Source: Ampullaceana balthica (taxonomy: Eukaryota; Mollusca; Gastropoda; Lymnaeidae). Taken from it: 64,000 nt of DNA. The position numbers and the translations under genes were made by a program. The stretch is taken from the NCBI GenBank assembly GCA_944989445.1, contig CALYLW010000212.1, positions 708,001 through 772,000 of the forward strand. Direction: 5' to 3'. Each line of letters starts with the position of its first letter. The first letter of the stretch is position 1. Shown here piece by piece: positions 2,753 to 60,810 of the stretch. The notes beneath the pieces are model-generated. The model searched no databases, was not told where the DNA came from, and worked only from the letters and a program-made list of their open reading frames with translations.

Positions 2753-2947
2753 AGAAAGAGACAAATGATTTGCTGTACAGTATACAATTGTACGATGGCC
2801 ACGGTGACTTAACCTACGAAGGCAGCTCCAATGATATCATTCAGTCAGAAATTTTTATTCCACAAAAACTGAATAACCCAGTCAAGCAAGTGAGGTTAAA
2901 GGTCACCGCTGGTTCCATGGATCTCTGCCACATTCAAGTTTTCGGAG
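2753..2947 (+). CDS. Gene A exon: C-terminal half of a fucolectin-like domain
   Basis: 195 nt, phase 1 in and out, between ..CTATCCCAG and GTACGT. The peptide includes LLYSIQLYDGHGD and ends DLCHIQVFGG, the closing beta strand of the F-type lectin / F5-8C fold (compare LCEVEVYGG in gene F and LCYVEVFGG at 37721-37924, to which it is clearly paralogous). Confidence 0.8.
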
Positions 2948-5648
2948 GTACGTTCAAGAAATTTCTGCATTGGATTCCGATCTCTGCATATCAAAATGTG
3001 TCAGTTTGTTGATGTGCTGCAATGTAGGATGGTGGAGAAAGTAATTCGTTTTTATTGTATATAGATCTAATCTATAGCTTTTGTCAATTTAACAATGTGT
3101 TCTAAATAGAATATCTGCGAATAGTTATTATGATTCTTTTCTTTCGTTATTCTTCTATTTGTTAGAAGAAATTGATTTTTAAGACAGCTTGAGACCAACA
3201 CCATGATTAAAACATTAGAATTAAGAGTCTAAAGGGATGATAGGTTTAAATTTAGATTAAAATTAAAAAACATTACCCATTAAACAAAATTAAAGTATGT
3301 ATTGTTCTTGTTATGTTTTATTATTTTTGCAATGTGAATAGCAAACGACTCTGACGGCAAAGCTCTGTCGGGGCTTAAAGACAACACGAAACAGTTAAAT
3401 TGTATGGCGCGCTGGATTAACTGAAATCAAGTTTGAAGACAGTTCGCCTTCGTTTTGAAACAATCTAATTATTTTTAATTACTTTTTATCAATTAGAGGT
3501 GTTGATATTTTATGATTTTTGCAGCATTTACGTAAATGTGTATAACCAAGAGGCCTTAGTGTTGTTTAATTGTAGACGGAGTCACAACAACAAACAATTA
3601 TAATAATACAAAAATAAGCATACCTGATGTATACTATCTAGAATGCCGACCTCCATACTACGGTCCTGAATGTGAGGAAACATGTATGCTAACTTGTTTC
3701 AATGACAAATGCAACTTTGATGGTTCCTGTCATGAATGTATAGGTGACAATAAAGGAGTCCTTTGCATGGATGGTAATGTTTATTGTAGATTTTATTTGG
3801 TATTTATTCTTTGAATCTTTAAATATTTCTTCTATTGAAAGGAAAAAAGAAGCGACTGCTAAATTGGCAGTGTCAAATCTAAAATTTGCATCAATAAGTT
3901 TAAGGATATGTGACACTTTTTTCTTTAAGAAGATTAAAAAAAGCTAATATTCTTTTTCATTTTTATTATAAAGTTACTGTGTAGGGTTTTTATGACTGTT
4001 TTGTTCTCGCTGTTCACCCTTAATCAAACCAATGAGATAGTCAATGTCTTTTTTTTTCTTCCAAAGTTACTGTTGCCTCAACCACCAGTGTTAACGTCAG
4101 TAATGTGCGATTTGGGAAAAATGTTGAAAAACAAGAGCAAGGAGACTCAGGAGTAATCACACTATTCTTGATTTTTGTGCTCACACTACTAGGGTTGGCT
4201 GTTGTTGCAGTGTGGTGGAGAAGACGATGCTCTTATCAGGAAGAAGAAGGGTAAATTATAAATATGTATGCCTTTTTACATATAGAATACGCTTCATGCG
4301 GCGTTCTGGCACTACCAAAAGGACAGCGCGTGACGGGGACAAGTGGCGTGAAAAAGTGAATAGTCAGTGATAGTTCCACAATGGGCTCCAACGACCCAAA
4401 ACATGGGTAAAAGGATGAGAAGATGAACACATTTATTTGTATCAGATAGTTTTGAGTCAAATTAAGGGCTATGTAGTAAATATCTAAACGATATTTACAC
4501 CTATCTCATTTTAAGATACTTGCGTTTCAAACTGTGCGCTGTGCCGTAGACATTATATCATGATGATTTCCTGTACTTAATCTGGAAATTCATCCGACTC
4601 TAATCCATACCTTTATCCGTATTTATTGATTATATTGCCTTTTTTGAGGGGTTATGCAATGATTTTGAAACGCTTGATTTGGATTCTTGCGTAAATTGTA
4701 CAAGAAAACGTAGAGTTTTAAAGATGTTAATGACTGTTGACTGTTTCCAATTTTTGTCGTTTATCACATCGTAACTTTGAAATCGTGAAGATTATGTGTC
4801 ATTGAAAACGAAAAAAAATGATGGCTTGTAAGTCGGCGATCTTATATAATATTCGCGGTACAGTAAGCGTAGTTTTTGTTCAATCCAAAGTAGATATTGG
4901 TGTAAAATTTGTGTGGGGCAGTATATAAAAAAGTATATACTAGAATTGTGAGCTTTGTTACTCTGATTTAAAAGCTTTGGGGATATTTAGGTTGATAATA
5001 AAGAAGTATAAAATTACTTTAATTTGAAAATTTTCCATTAACACTTTCGCATTATCATTTGTTTTTACAGAAGTTTATCACTAATATCAGGGGGGAAAAC
5101 GCTAGATTTAATATAAAATATCCCATCTTTTATTATTAAATATTTATAAGCTATTAACATTGTTTGCATTACATATACAGATCGATAACAGATAACGCTG
5201 ACCTAGAGGAAGGCGCTAACAAGTAAGTAGAATAAAATTTGTAACGATGCCCACAAGATAATGTTAATCTAAAATAATGATACAGTACTTACGATTGCCA
5301 CAAAAAAAGTCACATTACAAAATTCATACTATTTTGTGAGGTTATGAATCATAACAAATTTACCAATACAAAATGTTAAATTAAAATTTAATGTAATTTT
5401 TTGTTGTTTTTTTTTGTGTGTGTTGTTTTTGTTTTTTTTTGTTTTAGTTTGCTACATCATGTAAAAAAAAACCTGTAATTTAAATAACGTTTCTCTTCAA
5501 TTTTCCTCTACCGGGAAAATACAGTTTCGAGACTGATACAGAAAGTATTTCGGCACCAAATGATGATGATGCAGATGAGGTCTCGTCCATATACTCATTA
5601 ACACTTTCAGACGCATCAAAGTCATTGAGTTTGAACTCAGAATCATGA
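2753..5648 (+). CDS. Gene A: fucolectin-like/EGF transmembrane receptor, 5' part not seen
   Basis: Five plus-strand exons with matching phases (2753-2947, 3576 or 3642-3773, 4067-4250, 5181-5222, 5525-5648) encode the 3' half of a type-I membrane protein: the C-terminal half of a lectin-like domain ending LCHIQVFGG, one six-plus-cysteine EGF-like module, a linker with a transmembrane helix and a WWRRR stop-transfer, and an acidic cytoplasmic tail ending at TGA 5646-5648. No lesion is seen. The exon order and sequences parallel 37721-40866 in gene C/D. Upstream exons (signal peptide, first lectin half) are either left of the window or lost to the elements and odd tract at 1-2731. A surface recognition role is inferred from the modules; the ligand is unknown. 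Confidence 0.75.
3576..3773 (+). CDS. Gene A exon: EGF-like module with optional 22-residue linker
   Basis: The EGF core reads ECRPPYYGPECEETC and so on with eight cysteines, and ends at a GTAATG donor after 3773. Two acceptors fit phase 1: TTGTAG before 3576 and TATCTAG before 3642. The longer form adds 22 codons, without stops, rich in Thr and Asn (one NNT glycosylation motif). The first acceptor has the better pyrimidine tract; the second gives exactly the 132-nt size of the paralogous exon at 39010-39141. Confidence 0.8.
4067..4250 (+). CDS. Gene A exon: juxtamembrane linker and transmembrane helix
   Basis: 184 nt, phase 1 in, phase 2 out (GTAAAT donor). A Ser/Thr/Val linker with an NVS sequon leads into the hydrophobic stretch ITLFLIFVLTLLGLAVVAV, then WWRRRCSYQEEE. 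The basic cluster after the helix fixes a type-I topology. The paralogous exon is 39642-39813. Confidence 0.85.
5181..5222 (+). CDS. Gene A exon: cytoplasmic tail, first part
   Basis: A 42-nt exon (phase 2 in and out) between ATATACAG and GTAAGT, encoding about 14 residues, SITDNADLEEGAN. Small, but the phases join 4250 and 5525 without a stop. Confidence 0.65.
5525..5648 (+). CDS. Gene A terminal exon: acidic, Ser-rich tail
   Basis: Follows AAATACAG; encodes FETDTESISAPNDDDADEV and a Ser/Leu-rich end with SSIYSLTL, then TGA. The single tyrosine sits in YSLT, which does not match ITIM (needs hydrophobic at +3) or YxxPhi, so no signalling motif is claimed. Confidence 0.8.
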
Positions 5649-5716
5649 CCATCAAATCATATTTTCAAAAAAAATTCTGTTTGTTTTAATAACATGAGCC
5701 CCTTCAAAAGTAATGC

Positions 5717-5722
5717 AATAAA
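5717..5722 (+). promoter_or_regulatory. Gene A polyadenylation signal
   Basis: AATAAA, about 70 nt after the gene A stop codon. Confidence 0.65.
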
Positions 5723-6173
5723 ATGTCTCAATCCAGCAGTTTAAAAATAACGTGACTTCCTCTGCAAGTAATAAAAATGCATGTACTAACATAACATACT
5801 TCTCTCCTCTTGTTATGTAGATTTATAAATATAGAAAAGTATTAACGATTATCAAAGAGTATATTGAATTATTTTTAATACGTAACTTATTTAATTATTA
5901 AATTTGTTTTGAAAACAAGCATACTAGATTTATCAAGACATTAGAAGTAATTTCTACAGTTTTAAAAACAAAATAATATCATATTACAATTTATGGTTTC
6001 TAATTTAAATTATAAAAAAAATTATTCAAATCTGTCTACTTTTTGTGTTAAGATTACCAAAAAATATTTTTTGATTTTGTACTTTCAATCGTGTAACATT
6101 TTTTTTATTAATGCCAATAAATATTTATTTTCAAACATATATTTGTCTTTTTTTTTATTTTTTTTTACTATGT
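5723..6173. other. AT-rich spacer, nothing recognised
   Basis: Between the gene A poly(A) signal and the LINE insertion. AT-rich, with T runs just before the LINE target site; no gene or repeat that I can name. Confidence 0.6.
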
Positions 6174-6185
6174 ACTTTGTAACCC

Positions 6186-9573: not shown

Positions 9574-9585
9574 ACTTTGTAACCC

Positions 9586-14202: not shown

Positions 14203-14630
14203 CTTGTAAGGGGCCGTCCATACAGTACGTCACGCTCCAGAGGGGGGAGGGGGTGTGAGAGAGTGTGACACTTTGTGACAGGGGGAGAGGGGGGTGTCCG
14301 GCCATGTGTGACGTCACGCTGTTTTATATTAAATTTTGATTATTTTGTTAATAAAAAAACAAAAAATTTTTTTCGAAAGTGTGACGTACTTTAGGGGGGG
14401 GGGTCCGAGATGTGTGACAGTTTGTGACAGGGGAGAGGGGGGAGAGTTAAAATGGTCAAAAATAGCGTGACGTACTTTATGGACGGCCCCTAAGCCTGGT
14501 TTCTTTGGTGGGAACTGCTCCTACCCGTGTATCAACGAACACTGTCTTAACAACTCCTGTAACAAAGACAAAGGAACTTGTGACCTCGGATGTGAGATTG
14601 GATAAGAGAATTTCCCTAAATGTGTTTCTG
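14203..14630 (+). pseudogene. Gene B EGF exon split by a MITE
   Basis: After the acceptor TTCTGCAG the exon starts CTTGTAA, is cut by the MITE at 14210-14490, and resumes after the duplicated TAA with GCCTGGTTTC, ending at GTGAGC. Removing the element and one TAA leaves 144 nt, a multiple of three, coding an EGF module (CKPGFFGGNCSYPC, NSCNKDKGTCDLGCE). A TAA stop at about 14602 interrupts the last loop. Closest relatives here are 31776-31916 and 46805-46927. Confidence 0.85.
14210..14490. mobile_element. Harbinger-like MITE, copy 2, inside an exon
   Basis: 281 bp, ends GGGGCCGTCCATACAGTACG and the reverse complement of GGGGCCGTCCATAAAGTACG, flanked by TAA at 14207-14209 and 14491-14493. Same family as 1206-1463 with a different TWA target, so the two are independent insertions. 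Confidence 0.9.
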
Positions 14631-15382: not shown

Positions 15383-15515
15383 AATGCACACCTGGCAGCA
15401 AAGAACAAAGATTGTCGAGATTGTGAAGACTGTTACAAGGGGACGTGCGCATTTAAACATGATTTGTGTGTCCCAGGTTGCAAGGGATACATTGAGCCAA
15501 TGAGATGTGAACAAC
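15383..15515 (+). pseudogene. Gene B EGF exon with +1 frameshift
   Basis: Flanked by TTGACAG and GTAAGT. The entry frame gives ECTPGSKE and then a stop; the exit frame reads KDCRDCEDCYKGTCAFKH with DLCVPGCKGYIEP. One base too many near 15407 explains both. Length 133 nt against the multiple of three seen in sister exons. Confidence 0.75.
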
Positions 15516-17976: not shown

Positions 17977-18075
17977 AGTGTAATTCAATGTGTTTAAACA
18001 GGACATGTCATCAGTTTACACGGGAATGTTTACTGGGCTGTCGCAAAGGGTGTACGGGAAAATTATGTGACAAAC
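17977..18075 (+). pseudogene. Gene B EGF exon, intact
   Basis: 99 nt, phase 1 both ends, TTTTCAG / GTACGT. Codes a half-length EGF unit (CNSMCLNRTCHQFTRECLL then GCRKGCTGKLC), the size of 29026-29124 in gene C. Confidence 0.75.
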
Positions 18076-18439: not shown

Positions 18440-18538
18440 AGTGTTCAAAGTGTGCAGGTAACGGTAGCTGCGATCAGAAATCTGCACATTGTTTAATAGG
18501 CTGTCAAGACGATTACTACGGGTTGACGTGCGTCATGA
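18440..18538 (+). pseudogene. Gene B last EGF exon, intact
   Basis: 99 nt, phase 1 both ends, TTCTAG / GTAAGT; codes CSKCAGNGSCDQKSAHC and GCQDDYYGLTC. No continuation exon is found downstream, so the gene lacks an anchor or stop codon. Confidence 0.75.
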
Positions 18539-21305: not shown

Positions 21306-21402
21306 ATGAATTCAATTGTCTTTATCAACTGGAGACGCACAAAGCATCTGGTAGTCACTTCTATATTTCTCCTTTATCAAATTTGTGGAGTAACATGTGC
21401 CC
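21306..21402 (+). CDS. Gene C/D exon 1: signal peptide
   Basis: ATG 21306 (the ATG at 21301 is closed at once by TGA). 97 nt, phase 1 out at CC|GTAAGT. After a basic N-region (NWRRTKH) comes the hydrophobic core LVVTSIFLLYQICGVTCA, a good secretion signal. Confidence 0.85.
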
Positions 21403-24400
21403 GTAAGTTAGTTTTAAGCACTTTTAATGTGTCTTTGTTTTTAGTCATAAATCGTAAAGGTTTCCCTTGCCAGCATTGTCAAGAATCACAAAGTCTAAAT
21501 TGTACTTTGATATTTCTATTTAGAAAGTTTTACTTTTCATTGTCTGTTATGGTTTTTACGGAAATTAATTCGTGAGTTGAGCTTGATTCAAATTTACCTA
21601 TTTTATAACCTTTAAAAATGTTAAATTGTTTAGGTTGCCCTGAAGGTTTCACTGGACCAAACTGTAAGTACCTATGCCATTGTTTGAAGAAAGGTTGTCT
21701 GGACAGCGGTGAGTGTTTATACGGTAGAAACTGTGAGACGCCGTACTACGGACTAGCCTGTCAATATGGTAGGTTATATAACTTTCATGTATTTATTAGT
21801 GAGACGGTAATTAAGATATGGTGCTTTATGAAGGTACATGATTAGTCGCATCCAGGCAGAATAGCGACTTTCAAAACAGCGACCGTCATAATCGCGACTT
21901 CAAAATAGCGACTGTATCAAAACAGCGACTGTCAAAACAGCGATCATCATACTAGCGACTGCATCATAACAGAGACTGTATCAAAATAGCGACTTTTTCT
22001 TTTGCTTGTGTTAATGTTTGAAAAACTTACTTTGCCTAGCCTACAATGGAGTTTAAAAAATCAAGAAAAGGATGACATGATAAGCCGTTAATACAAAATT
22101 AAATACAATAAACTGGAGGTGTGTATAAATAAATGTTGGTGTTGTAAAGAGTGTATGCACATTTTCGGGACACATTTTAAAACAAAATTCTGTAAAAAAA
22201 ATTATAGCGGCTATTACTTCAGTCACATATATTTTGCAGAAGGCTCAATAGAGATTAGTAAACATAGATGCAGTCGATTAATTGAGGGGGATTGCGGTGG
22301 TAGGGGCAGATGTGGCTTGTGACTGCTTTTTAAGCTAAAGACAGTTGGACTACAGGATTTTGTGATCCCCGGATGTTTCAAACCTTTTCTTTTTTACCTC
22401 GTAAAATTGTTGTTATTGTTGTGTGTTTTTTTCTAGTAGCTTGCAGAATAAAGAACCTGAAGAAAATGCAATTATTGGTTGTAAATTCTAAGGATTAACT
22501 GGAAACGTTTAATAAAGCTAGAAGTGTGTGTATGTAGAGCTGAAGGTGGAGGGAGAGGGGGGGTTTACGTCATGCTTTCCAATCATTTTCTATATGTTGG
22601 TTGTTTTTTTATTTATTGTTGAGACAATTCATTGTTACATTTTTTGGATTCTATCTGTTTCAAAATAAACAATTTCACTTCATCATTTGATCGACTTGGA
22701 CCCACACCCAAATATTCAAGTCTAAAAGAGATACACACACTAATCAGCATTATAGTCAAACAACGTATAGAAAATCATTATCAGGGATTAACGTCTTCTT
22801 AAACGTTTTTACTTAATTTTACGACACAATAAAATTTAAAAAAAACGTTGTTCTGTTACTGGTAGCTAATTTTTTGATACCTGCATGAAGTGCATGATTG
22901 ATTTTTCTCTATCTTTGATTTCAGTTAACATAGCCTATAATGAAAATTCATTCTTGGTTGACTCTGACACCAGAACGTGTGCATTCGTGAGAATGAATTT
23001 GACCATGAATCTGTTGTACGAACGTCGCATAACAACATTTAGATTATGTGGTGGAAAATTGAGTAAGATTTTAATAGGGAGGTCCTGGATTAAAATTGTT
23101 GATTTTGACAGATTTATGAAGTGAAATCCGGCCGAAGCCAGGGCATGCTTTGTAAAAATGGATGGATACAGGATTGGCCTTATGCCGGATTTGCCGGAGC
23201 TCAAGCCTTTAGAAATACATGTATTTTAAGGGTCACCGGCCAGCCGAATATGGGTGGATTTATGAAGTGAAATTCTGTTGGAGCTGGAGCCGAATTTATA
23301 AAAATGGCTAGATTCTGGATTGGCAGGAGCCGAAGTCAAAATACGTTACACCTCTAGATTTTATAATTACAATAATTTGTTTACTTCGTAATTCGTTTAG
23401 CTTGTTACTGTTGACAACTTCAGTTACAATACAACTAAAGATACATACTATTAATGACTCTTGTTGTCTAGGGTAATATTCATTAATGGCTCTAGCCCCC
23501 AGTATCAAATACAAATACTAATCTATAACGAAGGATACGTTAACTACATATAATTAACAACTCGTAACGCCTCTTTCCACAACATAGAGAAAATATTTAT
23601 TTACATTAAATATATACATATAAAAATAAAATGGCATTGATTACAAACTATGAATATCTTGACAATAATATTCAGCTAAAAACATATAAAATAAAGGTAC
23701 GTTGTGTCCTCAACTTATTTTCTTATTTTCACACTAATCAACTGGTCCAGGTCCTTTCTCCTATTCGGACACCTGGCTCCGCCTCCAAAATGCCTATGCG
23801 AGACTGACCAACTGTCCGTCTTGCTCGACCGATAACTCTAGTGGGCGTTCCCAGACTTCAAAGTCGTGCCCCCCTCAGTTAGTCTTCAGCACTGGTTCTC
23901 ACTTCGTCATGGCTCAGGGTCATCTTACCCACTTTTGCCTGTAGAGCACATCTGGTGCTCACTTCAACACTAAGTTGCACTTGGCTATTCTAGCCCTATG
24001 TTACTTCCTTCACTGTAGGTAATACTACCCTACGTTACTTTCTTCACTGTAGGCAGGTAACAATACCCTACCGTACTTGCTGAAAATACAAATACACATA
24101 CATATATCGAATAACAATATATCAACCAATATAAAAAAGATAACAACATCTAACTCTAACATATATTTGATTATCTTTATATGTATAACAGTCTAACAAA
24201 CCTGAACACCTTCAGCAAGGCTCTGTTCCCCACAGTCTAGCACCTAGAACCTAATTCTCAGGGTGACCTGTGATATCTGGGAGAGAGAACGCCTCATGGT
24301 TTCTCCCAAGTATATAAAGGACCGCTCACCCACGCCATCATGGCATCTGCCCTACACCCCTATCAATTCTATTGGGTGAACCTTCACCCCATGGCTGGTG

Positions 24401-27400: not shown

Positions 27401-29265
27401 ATATGACGTCATTAGAGTTTTACAGAGTCAATGACTTTCTGGTGTTAAATTCGATAGGGCCAATATCCTTTGTTGAGATTAGCCTATCCGAAAATGGAAG
27501 AATGGTTTTTTTAACCATTTGTGAGCTAGAGGTTTTGGGAGGTAATTATACGTTGAAACATAGAGTTTCTAGAATTTAATATAACAAAGTTATATCTTTA
27601 AGTGTTTACTGATAATTGTTTTCCCATAGCGTTTTTTGTGTGAGTTTTATTTTGTTAATAGTTTTACAACGTTGTGAGCTCAAATTTCATCTCTTTAATA
27701 GTTTATATTTTAGCCCGTTTTGTAATTATATACCGATATTGGCTTAGTTGTATTTCTTTAAATTTTATTAATTTTATTATTATTTTAATACGATTACAGT
27801 TATTGTTTTTTATTACTTTTTTTGATGATTAGCTTGACTTCTATTAATACATGCACAAATGTGTATTTAATAGTCCTTAAGAATTATAAACTGCATATTT
27901 CATTTGACTGGTTTTTATCAAGTGTCTAGTATTTTATCCTGTTTACCCACCAAGTGAAACTCTTGTTATCCACTCCTATTTGTATATATTTAATGTATTT
28001 CAAGTAATTAATATAATAGTAACTATCTTTATTGCTTTCACGCGTTATAACTTACCAATACTTTCTAAACAATTGATTATTTTTCTTTTAAACAGAATGC
28101 GATAACGGCTACTATGGTTTAGAATGCAAAGAAAAGTGTTCCAACTATTGTTACAATGACACTTGTCACGGAGGTTACGGATATTGTTACGGCTGTGTTC
28201 ATTCGCGTTATGGGAGATTTTGTGAAAAGGGTGAGTTAGATGTATCTTATTTTGGGCCTTTTCTAGTTTAAAATAAATTGAAGTAACATTTTTAAAAAAT
28301 AATGTTAATATTGCCGGCAGAATTTTAAATTCAAAAGAAAATGATTAAATAGTGAACCACTTAAGATTATACGCAATGTGAACAATACCTTGATCGATAT
28401 ACTGCACTTCTAGACTCAGACAAACAATGACATGATTTTAATGGAATATGATATTTTTAAAAAAAATTCCTAAACTTAAAAAGAAATAATACTTGTTAAA
28501 CTTATCTTTTCTAATTGTAACTAAGAAATATTAATTTCAAAAAAAAATTAATAAACTTGTTTTAATGCTATCTTTATTTACAAAAAAGTACTTGAAAGAC
28601 AATTAATTTTGGAATTTGATGTGGCTGTTATGAATGAACTCTTGTTGATTTTTATTTAAAAAAAATAAAAATAAAAAAAAATAAAAAATTATTATTTATT
28701 TTTTATAGGATGAACGTAGTAAAAAAATGTCAGGTGAACTAGGTATTTTTAGGATACTAGCTTAGATTTGAGTAAGAAAATTGTATGACGTTTATGAATC
28801 AATTAGGTTATAATGCAACAGTTATCTTAAAAAAACACAAAAAAAACACAAAAAACACTATTTTTAAATGTGTTTTACCGATACGTATTTGTTCCTAAAC
28901 ATTAAATTGAGCCGTTGTACCAAAACTTATGTAAAAGAGAGTTCTAGCATTTCCTTATAAGAATCAACTGTTGGCTTGTTTGAACTTACGATGATTTATT
29001 TTACTATTTAAAAAACCAATAACAGAATGCTCTGAAAACTGTCTATTGGGGAACTGCACACAAAATGTGGGTTCGTGTGTTGGCGGTTGCAAGGCAGGTT
29101 TTTATGACTATGATTGTTCGATAGGTAAATTATCTTGAGATGTTCTATTTAATCTTATTTGAGTAATGCCTAAACCGTCTCTCTAGCCCCCTCCCCCACA
29201 ACTAACTACTATTACTAAAAAGCAAATAAATAATAATAATTGATCTTTGTGTGACAAAATTGTAC

Positions 29266-36400: not shown

Positions 36401-39400
36401 TAAAATGTTAAATATTTATAATGGCATAAACATGTTTTACGGCTGCTGGTTCAATTTAAGCTATGATACTTCTTTAAATCATTTGTATTACTTAAAGATT
36501 ACTGTTGTTCATAAAAGCACAGGCGATATACAAATATGTAAAGATGACTTATAACTCATAACATTTTAAAGTCAACATAAATTGACCAACCCAGACCCAT
36601 TCAACAAACAACTCACATTAATAGACACATATTAAGCAGCGTTTCTTTAACGCCCGGCTCTAACTTAGTCATAATTTGCATTTTCAAGCATAACCTTGTG
36701 TATAAAAGTAGTTGATTGATATTTATGTAATGTGCTCATCTGATGATGTTTTTTTTCTGAATAGTAAGAATGCAAACTTAGTTTTAAATCTATTTTAATT
36801 CTACTGATTGTAGCTTTAGAAAAATTAATAATTTCATATCATTTTATGAAATGAAGTTGTATTGCAGGACGAAGTTTTGCTCCAATCATCAGGGTTGAAT
36901 TACCTCAGCACATACAAATTGATGCTAAATTCAAACAACTTTTGACTTCTTTGACCGATGAGAAAAGGCGGAGACAAAAATGTTTAAATGTGAATAGCGT
37001 GGGTTTCAGAAGCGTTTTTATTACTCTAGAAGAACCCAGGCTTATTACAAAAATTGTATTACATACAAGTAAGTAACAAACTAAACACAGAAATCTGTTT
37101 AACCTTTTACAAAATAAATTTTGGCTACGACAAAATTGATATCACGTTATGTTATAATACCAATTTGTACATGTCAAATGAAAACCTATTTTGTAAACAG
37201 TGGAACATTTATAAGTTCAATGTTGATATTTAACAAAGGAGTCTTCAAATCAATATAAATGTTACGAGGCGGTTAAAACATTAACTAATATGCTTCTATA
37301 TATTTTTATAAACTAAAAATCTGGAATTTGTTAAAATTTTAGCATGTAAATGGAATTGAAATTGTAATAATGTGTTTTACTTAAAACTATATCTGATCCA
37401 TAACTTTCGTTTTCATATTTTTAATGCAGTTTTTAGAATCTAAAAAGCCGTTTAAACCATTTGGATTATGAAATAGAATTAAAAATGAAAACAATTTTTT
37501 GTTTAAGTCTTGAAAGTTTTAGTATAGATCTCATGTTATCTGTATGATATTATTTTAAAATTACGCTAACATTATACATTATAAATAACCTTTCTTTAAA
37601 AAATCTGTTTTAAAAACTGTTTTAAAATATATTTTTACACTTTTCTAACAACTCTTGCACCTCTACTGTTTTAACAAGATCAAATACAATTTATTCACGT
37701 CATTTCTTGCTGCTTAAAAGGTGTTTCAGAGAAGGACATGCATGATTACCTATTCACAATAAGGTTGTACGATTATCATAAAAATACTTTTTATGAAGCC
37801 AACTCCACGGAGCTAATTCACTCTAAAACATTAATTCCCAAACAATTGAATATTGCTATAAAAGAAATTCGTCTGGAAGTTATAAGACGATCAATTAATT
37901 TGTGTTATGTTGAAGTTTTTGGAGGTAAGTGTCGAAATACTTATTGAATACTAACTTTTAATTGTTTTTTTTAATGTTATTGTGAATGTTCGTCAAATGC
38001 TATTAAATTATGTGTTGTTTTGGTTTTTGACGACCAAAGCTAACGACTATTTTTTGTGTGTCCCATAACTTTTTTACGAGGTCGTAGGGGGTTCTAATGT
38101 TTCCATTAGTACATTCTCGGGCTTAGTAGACCTTGGCTGCGCCCATCCCTCTCCAGGTCAGCGGAGGACTTCCTTAGCGTTAGTCATTCATCAACCTTTT
38201 TTATAGTGAATTTAACGTGGGCTAGATCCCACGCCCCTCAGATACTATTTAGAAGGAAGAAAAACTCTTGACTTTTCTCTTTCCATTTAGAAGCAGCTGT
38301 TTAGTTATTGCTTTATTAGTGAAACTAAATTAAATAAAATTCCTTCAGAAAATTCTTTGCTGGAATTTATTTTGTCTACAATTTTATAGGAGTCTTGTGT
38401 TACAAACTGAAATGTATAGGAATTTCATCTTGGTGGTCGTCAAGTTATTTTGAAAATGATACTGTTTTTTTTTAAAGAGTGATTTTTATTTTCCTAAATT
38501 GGATTAGTATTTGGGATATAATTTAATTTAAAAAAAAAGAAATTAAATATGGATTATAAACCATTTCTTGCTGACGTGTGAGGAAATTCAGGAATAGAAA
38601 ACTGCTGTTTATTTTTGTGTCATATAAAGAGTTTGTGTGTTTTATTTACTAATATATATCAATCGAAATATGTGATTAACATACTATAAACGCGAGAACG
38701 CGAAACTTTAAACGTAATAGAATTTATCTATGCATTAAAGTCAAATGTTGTAAAATATAACAATATATTAAAATATTTTTTTTACATATCTAATATTTGC
38801 AAGTTATGCTTTATTCGTAAATCTGAAAATCGATTCTATAAAGTCTACTTTATTTTAGCCATATATATAAAATAATAAGTATCATAGAAACATATAGCAT
38901 ACTAACTGATAAGTTAAGTTTTTTGTTCATAAATTCTATTACCTTTTAGACATTTCTAAAAAAAGTAAACTGTAAAAAATTCCATTCAGAATGTTATCCC
39001 CCTTTTCAGAATGTTATCCCCCTTTCTTTGGGCTGGAATGCGATGAAACGTGCCGGTTTAGTTGCCGAAATGGAAAGTGCAACTTTGATGGCTCCTGCCA
39101 TGGGTGCCTCAGAGGGGGAAGTGGAGCCTATTGTCTGATCGGTACGAAATACAAATTCAGATATCTTGATAAAACACGAAACTTGGTAAATATATACACA
39201 TGATTACCTAGATACATTTTGGTGCCCCTAGTTGTAATGGCTGTAGTTAAATATGACGACTCCAAAACCTATGAATAGTTTTTTTTTAAATTATTATTAT
39301 TATTTTTTAATCTTAACTTGTTAAGAGATGCTATCAAACACGATTTAAATGAATATCAAAGATAACGCACACAAGTGGTTAGTCACCATTTATATATATA

Positions 39401-41107: not shown

Positions 41108-41113
41108 AATAAA
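41108..41113 (+). promoter_or_regulatory. Candidate poly(A) signal for gene C/D
   Basis: AATAAA about 240 nt after the tail exon; one of few canonical matches here, but AT-rich DNA gives such hexamers easily. Confidence 0.35.
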
Positions 41114-46804: not shown

Positions 46805-46927
46805 GGGGACTTAACTGTTCAGAGGAATGTCTTAGTGCTAACTGTGCTAGGAATTCTTGTGACAAACACATGGGTCTGTGTGACAAAGGATGTGATGGCT
46901 TCTTGGATTTTCCATATTGCTCTATTC
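46805..46927 (+). pseudogene. Relic E: 5'-truncated EGF exon
   Basis: Reads ECLSANCARNSCDKHMGLC, DKGCDGFLDFPYCSI and ends at a GTAGCT donor, clearly a sister of 31776-31916. The first two-cysteine part is replaced by a T-run/G-run junction (about 46781-46809). An internal TTCAG|AGG acceptor would leave an odd, shortened module. Confidence 0.75.
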
Positions 46928-51873: not shown

Positions 51874-51931
51874 ATGCTGTTTTTTGTCTACGCATCAGCT
51901 ATGACAGCGTGGCTTCTGTCAAATGTTAATG
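51874..51931 (+). CDS. Gene F exon 1: signal peptide
   Basis: MLFFVYASAMTAWLLSNVNG, 58 nt, phase 1 out at G|GTGAGT. Short but clearly hydrophobic, and in the same place and phase as the signal exon of C. Confidence 0.8.
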
Positions 51932-52710: not shown

Positions 52711-55700
52711 TCGTGTTTCATGTTCTCTGATTATAACATTTTTAAAAGGCAAAAGATTGTGCGACATTGGATGGTTCGGAACAGAGTGTCAATTTAAATG
52801 CCGTTGTATTAAGAAATGTACAGCTAAAGGTCTGTGTCATGACAGTCTCTGCCAGAAGGGTTGGTTTGGCCACGCATGCCAGAACCGTAAGTACATTCAT
52901 GAGAGACATAAATAATTTTAAATTTAAACCGTTTCTTCTGGCCTTTGTGTAGAAACAAGGATTTGTAAATGACGTTTCTCATACTTTCTTTTTACTGGAT
53001 AATATTGTTTGAGTTATTTAATTTGTAAAATTAATGTAGGTATTTACCTTCTCAAATATCACCGTCTGCATAATTCACATATATATTCATATATGCGTTA
53101 TGTCTCAATATTGCTTCCATGATTAATCGGTGGTCGGACACTTCGACCCCGGAAGATTTGACCCCGGACGGATTGACCCTGCCAGTTCAACCACAGGACG
53201 ATTCGACCCCAGGACGTTTTGACCCCGGTCGGTTCGACCATAGACGGTTCGACCCGGACGATTCGACCCCGGGCGACTCGACCCCAGATAGTTCGACTAC
53301 AGGTCATTTCGACCCCAGTGCGTTTCGACCCCGGACGTTTCGACCCCTTCGTATCTACACCATTTAATGTTTTAATATATTTTTTTTAATATATATTTTA
53401 AAATGTATTAATTTTCAAATTAATTTTTGATTTAAAAATAATTTAGCTTAAAATCATTATCCATAAAAAATTAAATACAATTTGAAATTGTTATTGATAA
53501 CCAGTCAATATTCAACGTGAATTCATGATTGTGATCAATGCGCCATTCCTCTGAGGTAGAAAGTCCTTCTGAACCAATCCAACTCCGCCCCCACCACGTC
53601 CGATGTAATAGGACAAAACAAAGGCAATGTGGTCAGACAGTCCTTTATAAAGGGGCCTACATTCTCTGTGCCCCCACTTACTCTATTTACCCTCGGAGGA
53701 ACACGGCTTGCTGTGGTGGTCACTAAGTGTAGCCTTCGTAACACGGGATTATGAAACCCTCGGACGAAATGTAAACAACAATGACGTAACATTCAGTCCA
53801 GTATACGGGTCCAGCAGCTTGAATGTTGTTATCTGCTAGGCGCGGTATAAACTATTGAAATTTATAAACTTAAAATACTGACAACTTTGTACGTCTTATG
53901 AAAATCAGTAATTCCGTTTTGGAGGTATAAACGTTTTAAACAACACAAGAAACAGAAGTGAATGCAAAGGGCGCGTGTTTGTAATGGTTTCAGCGCCTGC
54001 GTTCAGCATGTCGACACTTTAAAAAAAAATTAGGAAATAATTTAAAGAAAAAATAAAGAAAAAAGCAACTTTCGTTTTTTTTTAATCACGGTGAAAACCT
54101 TTGAACGACTTAAATTTACTTAAATATATACATTTTTAATACTCAATAGTAAATTAGGTACTATTTAGTTTTGTGTTTAGTTTGGGATAGGAGTTTTTAA
54201 TTTTTAATTGATAATATACCAAAAAGTAATTGTTAAAATATTTTTTTTTAAAAACAAACAAATAATAAATAAAAACATTTCACAATGTAGAAACGAGAGG
54301 GTTGAAACGTCGGGGTCGAACTGTCCGGGGTCGAAACGTCCTGGGGTCGAAACGTCTTGTGGTCGAACCGACCGGGGTCGAAACGTCCTGGGGTCGAAAC
54401 GCCCTGTGGTCGAACTGGCAGGGTCGAACCATCCGGGGTCGAAACGTCCGGGGTCAAAGTGTCCGTAATTCGAGTAATCTGAGGCAGAGGCGTTACTAGG
54501 GGGTGTTGACCATAGCTAGGGGTGTCACCATATGTAAAATTATGTATGTTCCAGTTAGTTGGCACTGACCGAATAGGAAGAGATTTATGGGGTATTTAAA
54601 GAGGCGTAGATACCATGAGCTACCGCACCGAGTGACACCACCTCAAGTGACGCCTCTGATCTGAGGAACAAATATATATGGATGTTAATTTATTTTTATA
54701 AAACACTTCAATTTTCTTCAAATTAAATATACTTTAATTTTGAAAAGGTCACCATTAATGACTGTCCTATTACTGTCCCAAACTCTTGCATTTTGAATTT
54801 AAAAAAGATCAATTTAAAAGGTTATAGTTTTAATTTTGATAAATTATCTTTTAATAAAAGATTTATGAATATAGCAGAATTTTAATGAATTAGATCAATA
54901 ATTTGGTACGTCTTCCTGGTAAATGTCTTAATCATAATCGTCTAAAACCAACTTAAATTACTAAAAAAAATTATGAACGCTCAAGTCATCATAATTTGAC
55001 AAATGTATCATGAAATAAAGGCACGCTTAGAATAAAATATTTAAAAATATTAGTTCTATAAGTTAATTGTTCCTATAAAGTCCTTAGTCGAAACTTTTAT
55101 TTTGTATTAGTAAAGTGATACAGTTTAAATTTATGTCTTTTGGATCATACAATTCGGTTATGTATCTTGTGTTTTATTTAAGAGCTTTATCATAGAAGTT
55201 GTGTTAAATTATATTTGTTAACATATTTCAGCGATTTCTAAAAACCCATCTAATAATTATTGTAAGATGAAAAAACCCATTGAGATTGTAAAATGACTTT
55301 AATGAGCCTCTATGATTATGTATATGGGATTGATAGGTAGAAACATTAAATTTGACTATTTCAATCAAAATATAAAATCAAATTGTTCAATCAGTTAATA
55401 CTATACATGTTTTGGTGAGAATTGTTTCCATATTTGAGATAGATATTTAAAAAACAAATTACAAAAATACTTTTTTTAATAAACATTTTTTGGATAATTA
55501 ACATAATGAAACTACATTTACAAAATAAATCAACTCAGATTCCCGACTTATCGCCACGAATTGATTCTTCATATTCTTTTCCTACGAATCATTTATCCCA
55601 CGAGTATATTAGAAGTAAAATGCGTGAGTTCTCCTTCATTATATTTTCCACCTCTTCCATCCATTCAGAGGATTTGGCCGCAGACCCAGATGCCATAATC

Positions 55701-58700
55701 TCAACAGTACCAGAAAATATTGATTTAACTTGCATGACTGACAATAATGACAGCACTTGTTACTATGGAGAATCCCTCGAGACAATCACAGTCGAATGGA
55801 AAACAAAAAGATACGTCTTTACGTGGCTAAGAATCGCCTTGAATAAAGACAGTGAGTTAGATTAACACGTCAAAATTGTACGTAAATTAAGAAACTGTTT
55901 TCGACAGTTTTAGTTTTAAATGCAGCTGACATTAATAATGCTTAGTTAAGCGACTCAAAATATGGTATTGAAGAAAAAATGCAAACAATATAATTTATTA
56001 TCAACAGTGGTAAAAATCACATCACATCAAAAATATTCTAAAGTGCCCTAAAATTGTGAATTTGATTCACTTTATATGCAGCAATGTACCAAATGGTTTT
56101 TATTAATCTATTTGCTATACTAATCCTCTAATGGTATTTCTTCTATACAGAATGCCAACAACTGTAGAATCTTTTTCCTCCTACTGTAGTTTTAACTTTA
56201 TCGTTTTTTCTACTTCCATTTTCTTCTTCTATTCTGAATTTTGCGTAACTAATTGTGACTAAATTTAATCTTTTCATTTATGTTCTTTAGTGTTTCTCTC
56301 TTAATTAAAATATTTGCATGGATTAGTTTGTTAAACAAGAGTGAATTAGGAATGCGTTAGTTTAACTAATTGAGAGTCGGAATATTAAGGACTTTAAAAA
56401 TAAAGTCTCAGATGCTAATGTGAACCAAATAATTTATTTAATACGCCAAAACAAGAAACAAACTGTTATAAGGCAAAATTTATTTTTAGCCCATCGTTAT
56501 ATTTGAATGATATTTTTATTTTTTAAAAAATGTTCTGGCATTTAAATTATATTGTTTATTAATAAAGAATTAAATATTTGAATAACTTTGCCAATGAAGA
56601 TTCCTATGTAATTTTGAATAGAAAAATGTAATTGTCACGTGTAAATCGCGTGTTGGGTGACGGGGAGGTCACGTGAGTTAAAGCGCGGGAAGAAGGTTGG
56701 AGATTATTGGTTGGAAGTGTTAGAGAATTCTGGTGTGTGTAATGGCGGAACGTGTACCTGAGGACTATACGTTTTATAACCTCAAATTATATAAGTTATG
56801 TGCAGTGTAGATATTAAAGTTGTTTTATTGAAACCATTTCTTCAGAGGATTATTGTATTCAAGGTTATGTATTGAGAGAACGCCTACAAGATATATTCAT
56901 AAGTAAAACATAACAAAGAGGTTACAGTAATGCTTTAAAAATAAAATTTTAAAAAATAATATACAAAAACCTTTATAACGCGAAATGCATTTTATGTAAC
57001 ATTTCTTATATAATCATATTTTATATCAATAACAGCATCATCAGATACAATTACAATGACGATTGTGGCAGACAGATCAGAAAACTATCAAGAATGCACA
57101 AATCAAGAGATAGAAAAACTTTCCGATCGTGTAGTGATTATTCATTGTGATTTCGGAAAACTGATACGCAAGCTCCGTTTAGCGGGTGCAGGACTAATAA
57201 AACTCTGCTCTTTCCATATAAATGGAGGTATGTTGTGTTTTTTTAAAATCATGCAATACAATTAAATTCAACAATAGCACAAACATTTCAATGGTTGGCT
57301 GCAAAGCTTTTGGTTCCATAGAGATGCCTTTGTTGTTGTTTATAGGATTTTCTACATGTGTCTAACTAGTTCAAGGTTGGACAATATTAACTAACACTAT
57401 CCGCCCCGAATTCAGTAAGCGGCAAACCAAACCAAAGTGTGTGGCTTTCGTTGCGAGATGAGTTAATATTGTAACATCTTTGTGATGTTTTAATTATTAG
57501 TGTATCTTGTAGGCGTTCTCAATACAAAACCTTGGATGCAATAATCCTCTGAATAATTGGTTTCAATAAAACAACTTTAATATCCTTACTATGTACTAAA
57601 TATATATAATTTGAGGTTATACAACGTGGGGTCCTCAAGCTGACGTCCGCCATTACACACATAATTCTGACAACTCTGATAATACTCTCGAACCTTCTAC
57701 CTCATTTCTACCCGCACTTTTACTCATGTGACCTCTCCATCATCCAACTCGTGATTCACTCGTGACCAATATCCTCCCATCTCGTCTTAAAAGGAACAAA
57801 AAGTATATTAGACGGTTTGAAGAAATATCGACATGTCATGTTGTTTTTTTTTAAATCAATGGTGGTTTTGAAAAGAGGGGTGGAGTGAGATTTACATTTA
57901 TTTGGTCTTCGTAAAAGTCTTCTGGCTGACATGTTCACTTACTCAAATCTTACATTGATTTATTTAAGAATTTCAAATGTGTTAAATTTAGGGCTGGTCT
58001 CTTTTAAACCGTTTTATTCATTTTCTTGGCTACTTTATTATTACTTGATATCTTGACTTTACTTTATATGTTTGTCTAATTTAAGAATATTTTGTTAGCA
58101 TCATCACGCGATTTGGGGACTTTCGGACAAGAAAACGCCGATCTAATCAAAATTATAAATAAAGACAAAATTCTACCTATGTTCTCTCTTCAGGTCGAAA
58201 TATAGCGCTGAGACAAGATGCCACTGTGAGCTCCAGTCGTGGCAGCGACACCACTGCGGATCTTGCTGTTGATGGTAACACTAATCCTGATTTTGGTAAC
58301 AAATCTTGCACTCACAATGATGATTTTAATGATATAAATCCACAGTGGAATCTGACGTTTTCAAGCAGTTATATGATTACACGAATACTTCTGTATAACA
58401 GAAATGCAGTCAGTAAGTCACACTGTAATTACTTGCACATTATAATTAATCAGATGTTTCTGTTTAAACGTCATCAATTGTTGACTATCTTTAATTTATT
58501 AATGAATGGTATCAAAATCAAATCCCATTATGTTTTAATACCTTCTTCAATGAGCCAACGCACACCTTTGCTAATGTTTATGAAGTGTTTCAATGTTTAA
58601 TATAGTATTTTTACAATACATCAGAGATTTTCATCCAAAAGTATTTTTCTCTTTTAATAAAAATAAAAATAAAAAAGGAATATATTTTTCTGAGGTTAAA

Positions 58701-60810
58701 AATGGTATTAAAAAATTACATTTGTAACTTAAAATGTTTTCTCTAAATATTTTTTTTTAGGGGAACGGCTCGTTGGCTTTCATGTCCATGGCTACATTGA
58801 CAATGACAGCATTGTTTTCACGCACGTTGATAATCGTACGGAAGGGTTGATGGTATTTGATGTTCTGGATATTCGGCTCAGTCAAATTCCGATTAAAAAA
58901 CTGTCAGTCAAAACCAACGGAGGAAAGGCGTTAACATTGTGTGAGGTTGAAGTGTATGGAGGTAATTTTTTATCTTAGTCGATAAATATTTTAAGTTTGC
59001 GTTTGAATGGAACATTCCAGGAATAAAAACTCTTCATTGCGGGTCGAGTTTTAGAAACGTGTTTTTTTTCTTTTTTTAAAATTGTATGGTTATAATTTGT
59101 AAGAATTTTTGTTGAAGACGGTAGCATGAATAATTGGATACACTTTTTCAAAGTACGAATAGTTTGAATCAGTAGCAGTGGATTAACCGTACGCTTCTGA
59201 GAGAATGGAGCCTTTTTCGATTTGTTAGCTTAAACGTATTGTATATATGAATTTTAACTTGTGTTTCTCTAGGCTAAAATACAAAATACACAAACAAATT
59301 GTGCAATGAAAACAATAAATTTGAGCTTTATTTTTAGACTGAAACGACTGATTCTCTAGGCTATAACTTTTGGTTCATACTTATTTTTTTTTGCATTTTA
59401 TATTATTTTTATAACAGTTTGAAATCATGATTCCTATTTCAAGTTATTGCTATAAGCTGGCCGTTGCTTTATTATTATGGTATTTAAAGTTTTTGAGAAA
59501 AAAATGTAGATTCCATTTTGTTTCCCTTTTTGTCTTTGTTATGATTATTTTCCCAACAAAAGAAGACATGCATATATTTGTAAAGAGTCATTAATAACTG
59601 AAAAAAAAATATAGCCATTAGGAAATGCTGCAAAAACTTTAAAAAAAAAGATGTGTATTATAATAACCATTGTAAAGTAAGGTCGCCTTTTGACACAATT
59701 TGGCTAGCACAATGCAAAGTCTCTTTAACTTCTTCAACTGATATCAGGTACCTATTAAAATCTGTGTAGACTGAGGAACGCCTTTAATCCTCTAGAAAAA
59801 GGCCCTGCCTGCATGAAAACACGTTGTCACTTGTCTCAACAATTGAGCGCTCTGCAGCTGGACCACAATATTCCTTTAATATATTTATGCTAAATATATA
59901 TATATATATATATATATATTTTAAATCACCATCGTAATTCCATCAATACATATCGTAGGTCTACTGTATTACATTAACATTAATGTCACTATTTTTTAAA
60001 GTTTTCATAACGTTTTTTCTGTCTTTTATTATTTATTTATTATTTACCCTTTGATAAAAAACGAATACTGATTTAAGATTATTTTTTTTCAGATAAGATT
60101 TTATATTCTTGGTTTTGAAATTAGATGCTATTTTTAAATCCTTTATATTAACTCGTGGTGTCTGCGGCCGACCTTGCTTGCTTGCTTGTCGCCAAAACTT
60201 TTGATCGATTTTTAACCCACTTGCTTGCAAGATATCGAGCTGAAATTTTGCAGGCAGTTTCGTACCGATGATAAAAACAATGTATCAAAATTTCAGATCG
60301 ATCGCATGTACCGTAATTAAATTATTGATTTTTTAGATTATTTTATTTATTCCTATGTATCATGCTATTTTTTTAGATAGAGCGTCGCGGTGCGTATTAT
60401 ATTGAACAACCTTTCTGTCGCGCAATAAGGTGCGTATTTTACTGACAACACTTTTTATAAATCTATTCCTGATCGGTGCGCATTATATTAAACACGTTTT
60501 ACGACACAACTGCAATTTTGTATTTTTGGATGGTCTTGCGCTGCATGTTATAATGAACATTCTTTTAGTTACGTCTCATACGTAAAGGATTTATAGTCAA
60601 AAATTTGGTTTTTTACGGTTGTTTTTATTTACGTCATTCTCTTCTTTTTAATTCCTTAAAACAAAAACAACCGAATAGAATGTACTAGCAGCGCATGGGG
60701 TCTGGAGTGTAGATCATGTTCTCACTGCATAGATTCATCATGTAACAAATATAACGGAATTTGCCAAAATGGTTGTTCCTCGCCAAGCATTCCTCCTCCT
60801 TGTACTGAAG
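51874..60810 (+). CDS. Gene F: fucolectin-like/EGF receptor, 3' end beyond the window
   Basis: Seven exons, all phase 1 and a multiple of three (after the first): signal peptide 51874-51931; EGF 52749-52886; divergent lectin-like domain 1 (55669-55851, 57036-57227); F-type lectin-like domain 2 (58194-58412, 58761-58961); EGF 60679-60810; about 374 codons so far. No stop or frameshift, so it appears intact. Further EGF, transmembrane and tail exons are expected to the right; 60811-64000 holds only transposon debris. The order equals that of the first half of gene C/D. Introns carry a foldback element, two solo LTRs, a SINE relic and a MITE. Confidence 0.8.
52636..52700. repeat. TA/TG microsatellite
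   Basis: (TA)n then (GT)n, ending about 50 bp before the first EGF exon of gene F. Confidence 0.95.
52749..52886 (+). CDS. Gene F exon: first EGF-like module
   Basis: 138 nt, phase 1 both ends. GKRLCDIGWFGTECQFKC then CTAKGLCHDSLCQKGWFGHA. The acceptor TTTAAAAG is weak in pyrimidines, but frame, cysteines and the GTAAGT donor fit. Confidence 0.85.
53119..54480. mobile_element. Foldback element with minisatellite arms
   Basis: The left arm (about 53119-53350) is about 14 units of a 15-16-bp repeat, consensus TTCGACCCCGGACG. The right arm (about 54300-54480) is the same repeat in reverse (GGGGTCGAAACGTCC). The outer ends match as inverted GATTAxTCG..CGGACACTTyGACCCCGG. The middle (about 950 bp) includes a GC-richer part (53535-53990) with no recognised ORF. 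The layout is that of foldback (FB/Galileo-like) elements. The frames read through the arms are repeat artefacts. It lies in the intron between the first EGF and lectin domain 1. Confidence 0.8.
55669..55851 (+). CDS. Gene F exon: lectin-like domain 1, first half
   Basis: 183 nt, phase 1 both ends, CATTCAG / GTGAGT. DLAADPDAIISTVPENID, TCMTDNNDSTCYYG and YVFTWLRIALNKD. Matches 22925 and 35115 in the TCxxxxDxxTC and FTW segments. Confidence 0.8.
56633..56926 (+). mobile_element. Solo LTR, forward
   Basis: 294 bp from TGTCACGTGTAAATCGCG to AAAGAGGTTACA, flanked by GTAAT at 56628-56632 and 56927-56931: TG..CA ends and a 5-bp duplication. CACGTG boxes near the start. No internal region remains, so it is a solo LTR. 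Confidence 0.85.
57036..57227 (+). CDS. Gene F exon: lectin-like domain 1, second half
   Basis: 192 nt, phase 1 both ends, ATAACAG / GTATGT. TIVADRSENYQECTNQE, VVIIHCDFGKLIRKLRL and ending LCSFHINGG. A second acceptor nine bases inside (CATCATCAG) is also in frame, so isoforms with or without three residues are possible. Confidence 0.8.
57470..57767 (-). mobile_element. Solo LTR, reverse, same family
   Basis: The reverse complement of the 56633 element, diverged, from TGTAACATCTTTGTG (its 3' end) to CGAGTGAATCACGAGT.. (its 5' end, outermost base changed). Flanked by AATAT at 57465-57469 and 57768-57772, different from the GTAAT of the other copy, so two independent insertions. Confidence 0.85.
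58194..58412 (+). CDS. Gene F exon: F-type lectin-like domain 2, first half
   Basis: 219 nt, phase 1 both ends, TTCAG / GTAAGT. GRNIALRQDATVSSSRGSD, then LAVDGNTNPDFGNKSCTH and ILLYNRNAV. This is the most typical fucolectin sequence here (NVAxxGxATQSS..AIDGN..SCTH..NRGD). The His of the sugar site is present; the R-x-D position reads R-N-A, so the Asp-equivalent is missing. Confidence 0.9.
58761..58961 (+). CDS. Gene F exon: F-type lectin-like domain 2, second half
   Basis: 201 nt, phase 1 both ends. RERLVGFHVHGYIDNDS continues the conserved GERI/L segment and the exon ends KALTLCEVEVYGG, the standard closing strand of fucolectins. One NRT sequon. Confidence 0.9.
59740..59885 (-). mobile_element. 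SINE-like relic
   Basis: Minus strand: GTGGTCCAGCTGCAGAGCGC, TTGTTGAGACAAGTGACAAC, then GCAGGCAGGGCC and GTTCCTCAGTCTACACAG. The head looks like a decayed tRNA promoter region. Recognised by general form only. Confidence 0.35.
60128..60600. mobile_element. MITE, relative of 43740 and 44331
   Basis: Starts AAATCCTTTATATTAACTCG and ends ACGTAAAGGATTTATAG, short terminal inverted repeats. The left 200 bp match 43783-43985. No ORF. It lies shortly before the second EGF exon of gene F. Confidence 0.65.
60679..60810 (+). CDS. Gene F exon: second EGF-like module
   Basis: 132 nt, phase 1 both ends. ECTSSAWGLECRSCSHC, SCNKYNGICQNGC and PPPCTEG before GTTGGT. The last coding exon visible in the window. 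Confidence 0.8.

What the first reader, a model, noticed from the sequence alone, without database searches (positions are those of the whole stretch)
2753..60810. Cluster of lectin/EGF transmembrane receptor paralogues in all states of decay
Seen: at least three substantial plus-strand genes (A, C/D, F), one dead gene (B) and relics (46.8 and 50.0 kb) share exon modules: first-type EGF, split fucolectin-like domains, membrane-proximal EGF, transmembrane exon, phase-2 tail exons. Known: snail loci of polymorphic single-pass membrane proteins (GRC/PTC regions) govern schistosome resistance, and F-type lectins bind glycans. Inference: this is a birth-and-death recognition-receptor locus, perhaps an undescribed F-lectin/EGF family.
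Basis: partly seen in the sequence, partly recalled or inferred. Interest (0 to 1): 0.8.

Follow-up and report, generated by a model that had tools for sequence, protein, structure and literature searches.

The report
Tandem snail-type lectin-EGF receptor genes
A snail-like genome carries a head-to-tail array of genes for cell-surface receptors built from fucose-lectin-type and EGF modules, whose outer part resembles receptors in a region tied to schistosome resistance in another snail; most of the copies seen look intact, and some may carry two sets of lectin domains on one protein.

Summary
The modules are real. The window carries same-strand, splice-consistent exons for EGF, F-type-lectin-fold, membrane-proximal EGF and transmembrane units. 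Gene F's second lectin domain matches a solved F-type lectin (FBP32, E=5.6e-19). F aligns with snail 'MEGF11/fucolectin' proteins and, at 33%, with the ectodomain of a Bulinus receptor tyrosine phosphatase, the kind reported in B. sudanica SudRes1 (PMC12297450). The gene map needs redrawing. 'B' is not dead. B (signal peptide, no TM found) and C/D (TM, no convincing signal peptide) read best as one 16-exon gene without stops. Gene A upstream and G downstream repeat parts of the order cassette I, EGFs, cassette II, but neither was read complete. The 'first-type EGFs' match post-lectin EGFs. Decay is limited to 14.5-15.5 and 46.8 kb; the 50.0 kb relic was not found. Five F-type L2 domains keep the H/R/R sugar residues and vary most in loops (dN/dS 0.87 against 0.49 in strands). 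No phosphatase domain was found in 184 kb. Transcription, polymorphism and ligand are untested; the immune role is inferred. New variant of a known kind.

The parts
2753..2947 (+). Gene A, cassette II lectin L2 C-half exon (gene starts upstream of the window)
   Evidence: cag/gtacgt splice sites; 42% aa identity to C_L2C
3642..3773 (+). Gene A membrane-proximal EGF exon
   Evidence: 53% aa identity to C_EGFmp
4067..4250 (+). Gene A transmembrane exon (phase 1 to 2)
   Evidence: hydrophobic segment plus WWRRRC; related to C_TM E=2e-5
5525..5648 (+). Gene A candidate cytoplasmic tail exon ending in a stop
   Evidence: phase-2 acceptor, acidic 40-aa tail; inferred, no homologue found
14486..14629 (+). 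Relic post-lectin EGF exon with an in-frame stop
15383..15515 (+). Relic EGF exon, frameshifted
   Evidence: 133 nt; cysteines continue in another frame
17977..18075 (+). Orphan 99-nt EGF exon, open
18440..18538 (+). Orphan 99-nt EGF exon, open
21306..21402 (+). Gene BC signal-peptide exon
   Evidence: MNSIVF...GVTCA, GTAAGT phase-1 donor, 231 bp before the first EGF; such an exon occurs in about 0.3-0.5% of simulated kilobases; 2 in the window's + strand, 0 in its - strand
21634..21768 (+). BC cassette I EGF2 exon
   Evidence: E=1e-9 to P0003 residues 18-68
22925..23062 (+). BC cassette I L1 N-half exon (very diverged)
   Evidence: order, splice sites and shared Cys and D..T..TC pattern in A3; not recovered by the L1 profile
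24821..24997 (+). BC cassette I L1 C-half exon (very diverged)
26516..26701 (+). BC cassette I L2 N-half exon
   Evidence: joined B_L2 hits the L2 profile E=3e-4
27341..27541 (+). BC cassette I L2 C-half exon
28096..28230 (+). BC EGF exon after cassette I; 61% identical to C212:692577 in gene A
29026..29124 (+). BC 99-nt EGF exon; 55% identical to C212:693090 in gene A
31776..31916 (+). BC single EGF1-type exon between cassettes (six in gene A, ten in G)
   Evidence: 51% to P0001 residues 416-461
33085..33225 (+). BC cassette II EGF2 exon
   Evidence: 59% to gene A, 55% to G
35115..35264 (+). BC cassette II L1 N-half exon
   Evidence: joined C_L1 hits the L1 profile E=8e-15
35842..36000 (+). 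BC cassette II L1 C-half exon
36868..37068 (+). BC cassette II L2 N-half exon (sugar triad absent)
37730..37924 (+). BC cassette II L2 C-half exon
   Evidence: joined C_L2 hits the L2 profile E=5e-6
39010..39141 (+). BC membrane-proximal EGF exon
39642..39813 (+). BC transmembrane exon (phase 1 to 2)
   Evidence: tail exon downstream unresolved
46823..46927 (+). Relic EGF1-type exon, first part lost
   Evidence: 58% to P0001 423-459, but the upstream part is a T/G tract
51874..51931 (+). Gene F signal-peptide exon
   Evidence: GTGAGT donor; 74% identical to the one at C212:835618
52749..52886 (+). Gene F EGF2 exon
   Evidence: E=7e-13 to P0004
55669..55851 (+). Gene F L1 N-half exon
57036..57227 (+). 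Gene F L1 C-half exon
58194..58412 (+). Gene F L2 N-half exon (AVDGN and H, R of the sugar site)
   Evidence: E=3e-14 to P0001; joined L2 to FBP32 E=5.6e-19
58761..58961 (+). Gene F L2 C-half exon (third basic residue)
60679..60810 (+). Gene F post-lectin EGF exon
   Evidence: E=3e-7 to P0006 292-335; GTT-type donor as in G and R2

Best explanation
This is part of a tandem array of type I single-pass receptors. In the full form proposed here, a signal peptide leads to cassette I (EGF, degenerate lectin L1, F-type lectin L2), then EGF modules (with 1, 6 or 10 EGF1-type copies in BC, A and G), then cassette II (EGF, diverged L1 and L2), a membrane-proximal EGF, a TM helix and a short tail without phosphatase. 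The window holds the 3' end of gene A, one whole two-cassette gene (B+C, 21.3 to about 40 kb), a cassette-I copy F (51.9-60.8 kb, perhaps the 5' end of a three-cassette gene with G) and relic EGF exons. Inferred working: L2 of F-type cassette I binds terminal fucose or a similar sugar through its H/R/R site, its loops tune specificity, the EGF run is a stalk, and cassette II is a diverged protein-binding part. With a short tail the receptor acts as an adhesion or uptake receptor, or as a non-signalling partner or decoy for phosphatase-tailed relatives with the same ectodomain; self/non-self recognition on haemocytes is the likeliest setting. Shown: exon content, order, homology, lectin kinship of F. 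Inferred: splicing into one transcript, ligand, cell type, function.
Against: No transcript joins B to C; they could be separate (secreted B; C with an unseen 5' exon). Weak signal-peptide-like candidates with poorer donors do precede cassette II of A and C, and one hydrophobic stretch without an acceptor lies between B and C. Gene A's cassette I and the 3' ends of G, R2 and R3 were not read (requests unanswered), so no second complete two-cassette gene was seen. B cassette I is a long branch that joins neither group in the tree, and B_L1 is not recovered by the L1 profile, so its equivalence to F-type cassette I rests on position. G cassette I has no signal peptide in the 2.5 kb scanned. L1-L2 profile comparison is weak (probability 3%), as is A2 against F_L2 (31%). 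The Asp of the published sugar motif is missing in F. Loop dN/dS is below 1 pooled, so relaxed constraint explains it as well as diversifying selection. No expression or immune data for this species.
Confidence: 0.58

Rival explanations
1. Separate single-cassette genes: B is a secreted lectin-EGF protein, C/D a membrane form with an undetected first exon, F a third gene.
For: Database relatives P0001-P0006 and P0017 carry one cassette; F-type cassette I copies mostly have their own signal-peptide exons; B cassette I joins no group in the tree.
Against: No TM exon with an acceptor found between B and C and no strong signal peptide before C; A and G repeat parts of the same order; cassette II exons of A, C and G form their own group. 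Some relatives are marked partial.
Confidence: 0.28
2. The receptors serve gamete recognition, adhesion or development rather than immunity; rapid change reflects sexual or relaxed selection.
For: The F-lectin review links mollusc F-lectin diversity partly to bindins in fertilisation (passages); MEGF proteins are often adhesion or engulfment receptors (recalled).
Against: A similar architecture lies in a region associated with schistosome resistance in B. sudanica, and RPTP and MEGF transcripts or proteins respond in snail haemocyte or infection data, though those are not shown to be this subfamily.
Confidence: 0.25
3. The array is largely non-functional: a decaying duplicate block whose open exons are recent copies.
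For: Three relic exons (14.5, 15.4, 46.8 kb), an RT element at 6.4-9.5 kb and a terminal-repeat element in a B-C intron; B and C are very diverged (end branches about 5); a number of genome-wide matches carry stops, some because the match runs into introns.
Against: 1 of 88 exon matches has an internal stop; whole-cassette dN/dS below 1 in 10 of 10 pairs at dS 0.26-0.40 (one short EGF2 pair alone gives 2.0 at dS 0.05); A and C differ more at third codon positions (0.63) than at first or second (0.36, 0.33).
Confidence: 0.08

Closest known systems
SudRes1 MEGF/GBD receptor-type tyrosine phosphatases of Biomphalaria sudanica (PMC12297450: abstract, passages, section 8 and part 1 of the discussion seen)
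   Same: Clustered paralogues, extracellular EGFs plus galactose-binding-like domain, single TM, extracellular diversity, loss of EGF domains in some copies.
   Different: Tandem intracellular PTP domains there; none found here in 184 kb. One GBD reported there; two lectin-type domains per cassette and, as read here, two cassettes. Antistasin neighbours were not sought.
Snail proteins deposited as MEGF11, fucolectin tachylectin-4 pentraxin-1 domain protein, unnamed or hypothetical (Biomphalaria glabrata, Bulinus truncatus, Lymnaea stagnalis; P0001-P0006)
   Same: EGF2, L1, L2, then post-lectin EGFs, in those long enough to show it; P0001, P0003 and P0006 start with a signal-peptide-like stretch; P0006 ends in a TM-like stretch and short tail.
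   Different: One cassette each; several are partial; 21-38% identity to window cassettes.
F-type lectins, e.g. striped bass FBP32 (PDB 3cqo); review PMC5712786, passages seen
   Same: L2 sequence and predicted fold, calcium motif AVDGN, H/R/R in F-type L2.
   Different: Membrane receptor with EGFs; motif Asp missing in F; B and cassette II of A and C lack the triad.
GRC/PTC1 and PTC2 clusters of B. glabrata (PMC7494358, passages seen)
   Same: Clustered single-pass membrane genes in a snail.

Membership tests
F-type lectin domain (L2 of gene F) | Sequence and fold kinship with solved F-type lectins | tested here: met
F-type lectin domain (L2 of gene F) | Fucose motif H-X24-R-X-D-X4-R/K | tested here: not met
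   0 of 6 full window domains by pattern with HX26 or with a gap of 15-40. F-type L2 keep H, R and a third basic residue in 5 of 5 (read by eye), but F lacks the Asp and the spacing differs
F-type lectin domain (L2 of gene F) | Calcium motif h2DGx | tested here: met
   AVDGN in F; 5 of 5 F-type cassettes
F-type lectin domain (L1, and B/C/A L2) | Profile or fold kinship | tested here: inconclusive
   B, C and A L2 hit the family L2 profile E=3e-4, 5e-6, 2e-3 (for 1000 sequences); L1 kinship to F5/8 rests on the first domain of P0018 and the model; no F5/8 or lectin Pfam match
MEGF/GBD RPTP (SudRes1 type) | Extracellular EGFs plus GBD and one TM | tested here: met
   Exon content of B+C and A, and F to P0017
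MEGF/GBD RPTP (SudRes1 type) | Intracellular PTP domains | tested here: not met
   No P0017 PTP match in the window or in 184 kb; Pfam over the three + frames of 4251-14200 and 39814-46800: no PTP. PTP elsewhere in this genome not tested (search did not complete)
GRC/PTC transmembrane clusters | Homology to GRC or PTC proteins | not testable with these tools
   No sequences to hand; paper passages only
GRC/PTC transmembrane clusters | High intraspecific polymorphism | not tested
   One assembly only

The most novel reading that the evidence does not exclude
A mollusc receptor family evolved by duplicating whole lectin-EGF cassettes inside one gene (two, perhaps three with F+G), joined by a variable run of EGFs (1, 6 or 10 EGF1-type copies in neighbouring genes). 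In F-type copies the outer cassette keeps a sugar site with fast-changing loops while the inner one has lost it. These short-tailed receptors would be non-signalling counterparts of phosphatase-tailed receptors with the same ectodomain: a paired-receptor system in a snail.
Probability: 0.35. Interest if true: 0.75.

Novelty: new variant of a known kind. Interest (0 to 1): 0.6.

Why it matters
A similar ectodomain is found in receptors of a region associated with schistosome resistance in a vector snail. A large, mostly open tandem family of short-tailed relatives with defined sugar-site states gives testable candidates for glycan recognition by snail cells, and shows how labels such as MEGF11 or fucolectin can hide the real gene structure. 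Pfam's PF00754 model found none of the copies on this contig (0 of its 61 genome-wide matches), so such families are easily missed.

Tried and rejected
Rejected: 'B is dead' (open exons, own signal peptide). Rejected: EGF1 as first exon of each gene (matches post-lectin EGFs; B has its signal peptide after the 14.5 kb EGF). Rejected: phosphatase tail in the window. Not confirmed: a relic at 50.0 kb. Unresolved: cytoplasmic tail of C (an exon at 40811 gives a very short tail in phase 2); 3' end of F; where B cassette I belongs. Led nowhere: first protein search with the C model (no hit at E<=0.01); Pfam on single exons (only one of ten, F_L2N, had an F5/8-type match); profile of all six lectin domains against the PDB gave FBP32 only (E=1e-6, F_L2 included); literature searches (listings seen), where the SudRes1 paper was the closest I recognised; PMC10875847 holds no mention of EGF, galactose or fucolectin by word search. 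The first cassette tree had no starred branch. The second model job and fold search 'viral' were not used.
Full report
What is in the sequence. tblastn with six snail proteins finds the same EGF and lectin exons; the hits printed (E<0.05) are all on the + strand. I set exon boundaries in phase 1, so the phase regularity is consistency; the independent facts are open frames, splice signals in the right place and homology.

Relatives. A search with F returned 16 proteins; the best six are from Bulinus truncatus, Biomphalaria glabrata and Lymnaea stagnalis. They show EGF2, L1, L2 and, where long enough, further EGFs; P0001, P0003 and P0006 begin with a signal-peptide-like stretch. A profile search gave three proteins at E<=1e-10: a 1141-aa Bulinus protein with tandem PTP domains whose ectodomain aligns with F over 361 columns at 33% (E=4e-65), a freshwater mussel protein and a clam protein. 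A search with the C model alone found nothing. No PTP match lies in the window, in the three + frames after the A and C TM exons or in 184 kb of this contig.

Redrawing the genes. B has a signal-peptide exon (21306-21402) 231 bp before its first EGF; such an exon with a strong donor occurs in about 0.3-0.5% of simulated kilobases, and the whole window has two on the + strand and none on the - strand. No TM exon with an acceptor was found between B and C; before C there are only signal-peptide-like candidates with poorer donors. Joined, B and C give 819 codons in 16 exons without stops. Flanking sequence supports this as a unit. Upstream, gene A shows an EGF 61% identical to B_EGFmp, a 99-nt EGF 55% identical to B_EGFx, six EGF1-type exons, then C-type EGF2, L1 and L2, ending in the window's A exons. 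Downstream, G has an F-type cassette I, a post-lectin EGF, ten EGF1-type exons, then C-type EGF2 and L1, where the fetched sequence ends. In a tree of 15 EGF2+L1 sequences, A, C and G cassettes II group together (98/96) and so do five F-type cassettes I (100/99); B cassette I is a long branch outside both. I read this as a duplicated unit holding both cassettes. A's cassette I and the 3' ends of G, R2 and R3 were not read: those requests did not complete, so the unit was not seen complete a second time.

F. F has a signal-peptide exon (51874-51931) 74% identical to one at C212:835618, with related ones at 960729 and on the minus strand at 955868. Its post-lectin EGF (60679-60810) has a GTT donor like those of G and R2. 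No TM exon was found up to 64 kb. G, 4.4 kb further on, has no signal peptide in the 2.5 kb scanned, so F+G could be one three-cassette gene, or F a cassette-I duplicate.

Decay and selection. Of 88 exon matches in three stretches (184 kb), one has an internal stop (14.5 kb); the 15.4 kb EGF is frameshifted and the 46.8 kb EGF has lost its first part; one more match, on the minus strand at 952018, is a partial EGF2. Protein matching favours open exons, so this is not an unbiased count. The 50.0 kb relic was not found. Five F-type cassettes I give dS 0.26-0.40 and dN/dS 0.40-0.76 over 10 pairs; by part, one short EGF2 pair gives 2.0 at dS 0.05 and L2 reaches 0.99. Split by the model's secondary structure, L2 loops give 0.87 (pairs 0.61-1.37), L2 strands/helices 0.49, L1 loops 0.47, L1 strands 0.45. 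Change is thus concentrated in L2 loops, by relaxed or diversifying selection. The H, R and third basic residue of the F-lectin site are kept in 5 of 5 F-type L2 and absent as a set in B and C (by eye).

Extent. The F protein matches 116 exon places, its own included; 37 on this contig, 21 on C538, and about 69 L2 N-half-like places on 29 contigs by hand count. Only 115 of 1213 candidates were scored, so these are lower bounds, and some are likely other F-lectin genes.

What is known. The closest published system is SudRes1 of B. sudanica: 10 of 23 genes encode multiple EGFs, three of them RPTPs with EGFs and a galactose-binding domain; 14 more such RPTPs are annotated, 13 of them clustered near SudRes1 (PMC12297450, section 8). 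PTC2 genes are described as lacking known domains and GRC homology (PMC7494358, passages). RPTP and MEGF products appear in B. glabrata haemocyte and infection data (PMC6281880 and PMC8791074, passages), not shown to be this subfamily.

Working model. Signal peptide, type I membrane topology and a lectin-fold outer part are supported by anatomy. Sugar binding by F-type L2 is plausible, not shown. Short tails without PTP suggest adhesion, uptake, partner signalling, or competition with phosphatase-tailed relatives. Immune recognition is the likeliest use by analogy; gamete or developmental roles remain open. On rechecking, the unplaced B cassette I made me lower the confidence slightly (0.60 to 0.58) and raise the separate-genes rival (0.25 to 0.28).

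Noticed in passing
6435-9531 (+): Non-LTR retroelement with endonuclease and reverse transcriptase matches (PF00078 E=1.6e-23), interrupted, between A and the 14.5 kb relic.
   Followed up: partly
29351-31020: Element with 69-nt terminal inverted repeats (93% complementary, 1532 nt apart) in the B-C intron; an integrase-like minus-strand ORF lies inside (name recalled, not searched).
   Followed up: partly
38985-39025: Exact 20-bp tandem duplication that doubles the 3' splice site of the C membrane-proximal EGF exon.
   Followed up: no
53135-53347 and 54299-54455: GC-rich minisatellites of related unit in opposite orientation, about 1 kb apart, in the large intron of F between EGF2 and L1.
   Followed up: no
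25081-25328: Seven 35-bp tandem repeats, 98% matching, in a B intron.
   Followed up: no
48279-48887 (-): Open frame of 202 aa with 69-nt tandem repeats rich in R, Q and E; mobile-element look (recalled).
   Followed up: no
63213-63701 (-): Open frame of 162 aa that looks like a retroelement gag (recalled, not searched).
   Followed up: no
L001-L008 (G000:C67, about 167-292 kb): A separate tandem array: 55 of the genome's 61 PF00754 matches lie on C67, 52 of them without an internal stop (hand count).
   Followed up: no
G000:C1154:35432 and G000:C1116:277022: Two L2-like matches with identical statistics, perhaps allelic duplicate contigs in the assembly.
   Followed up: no
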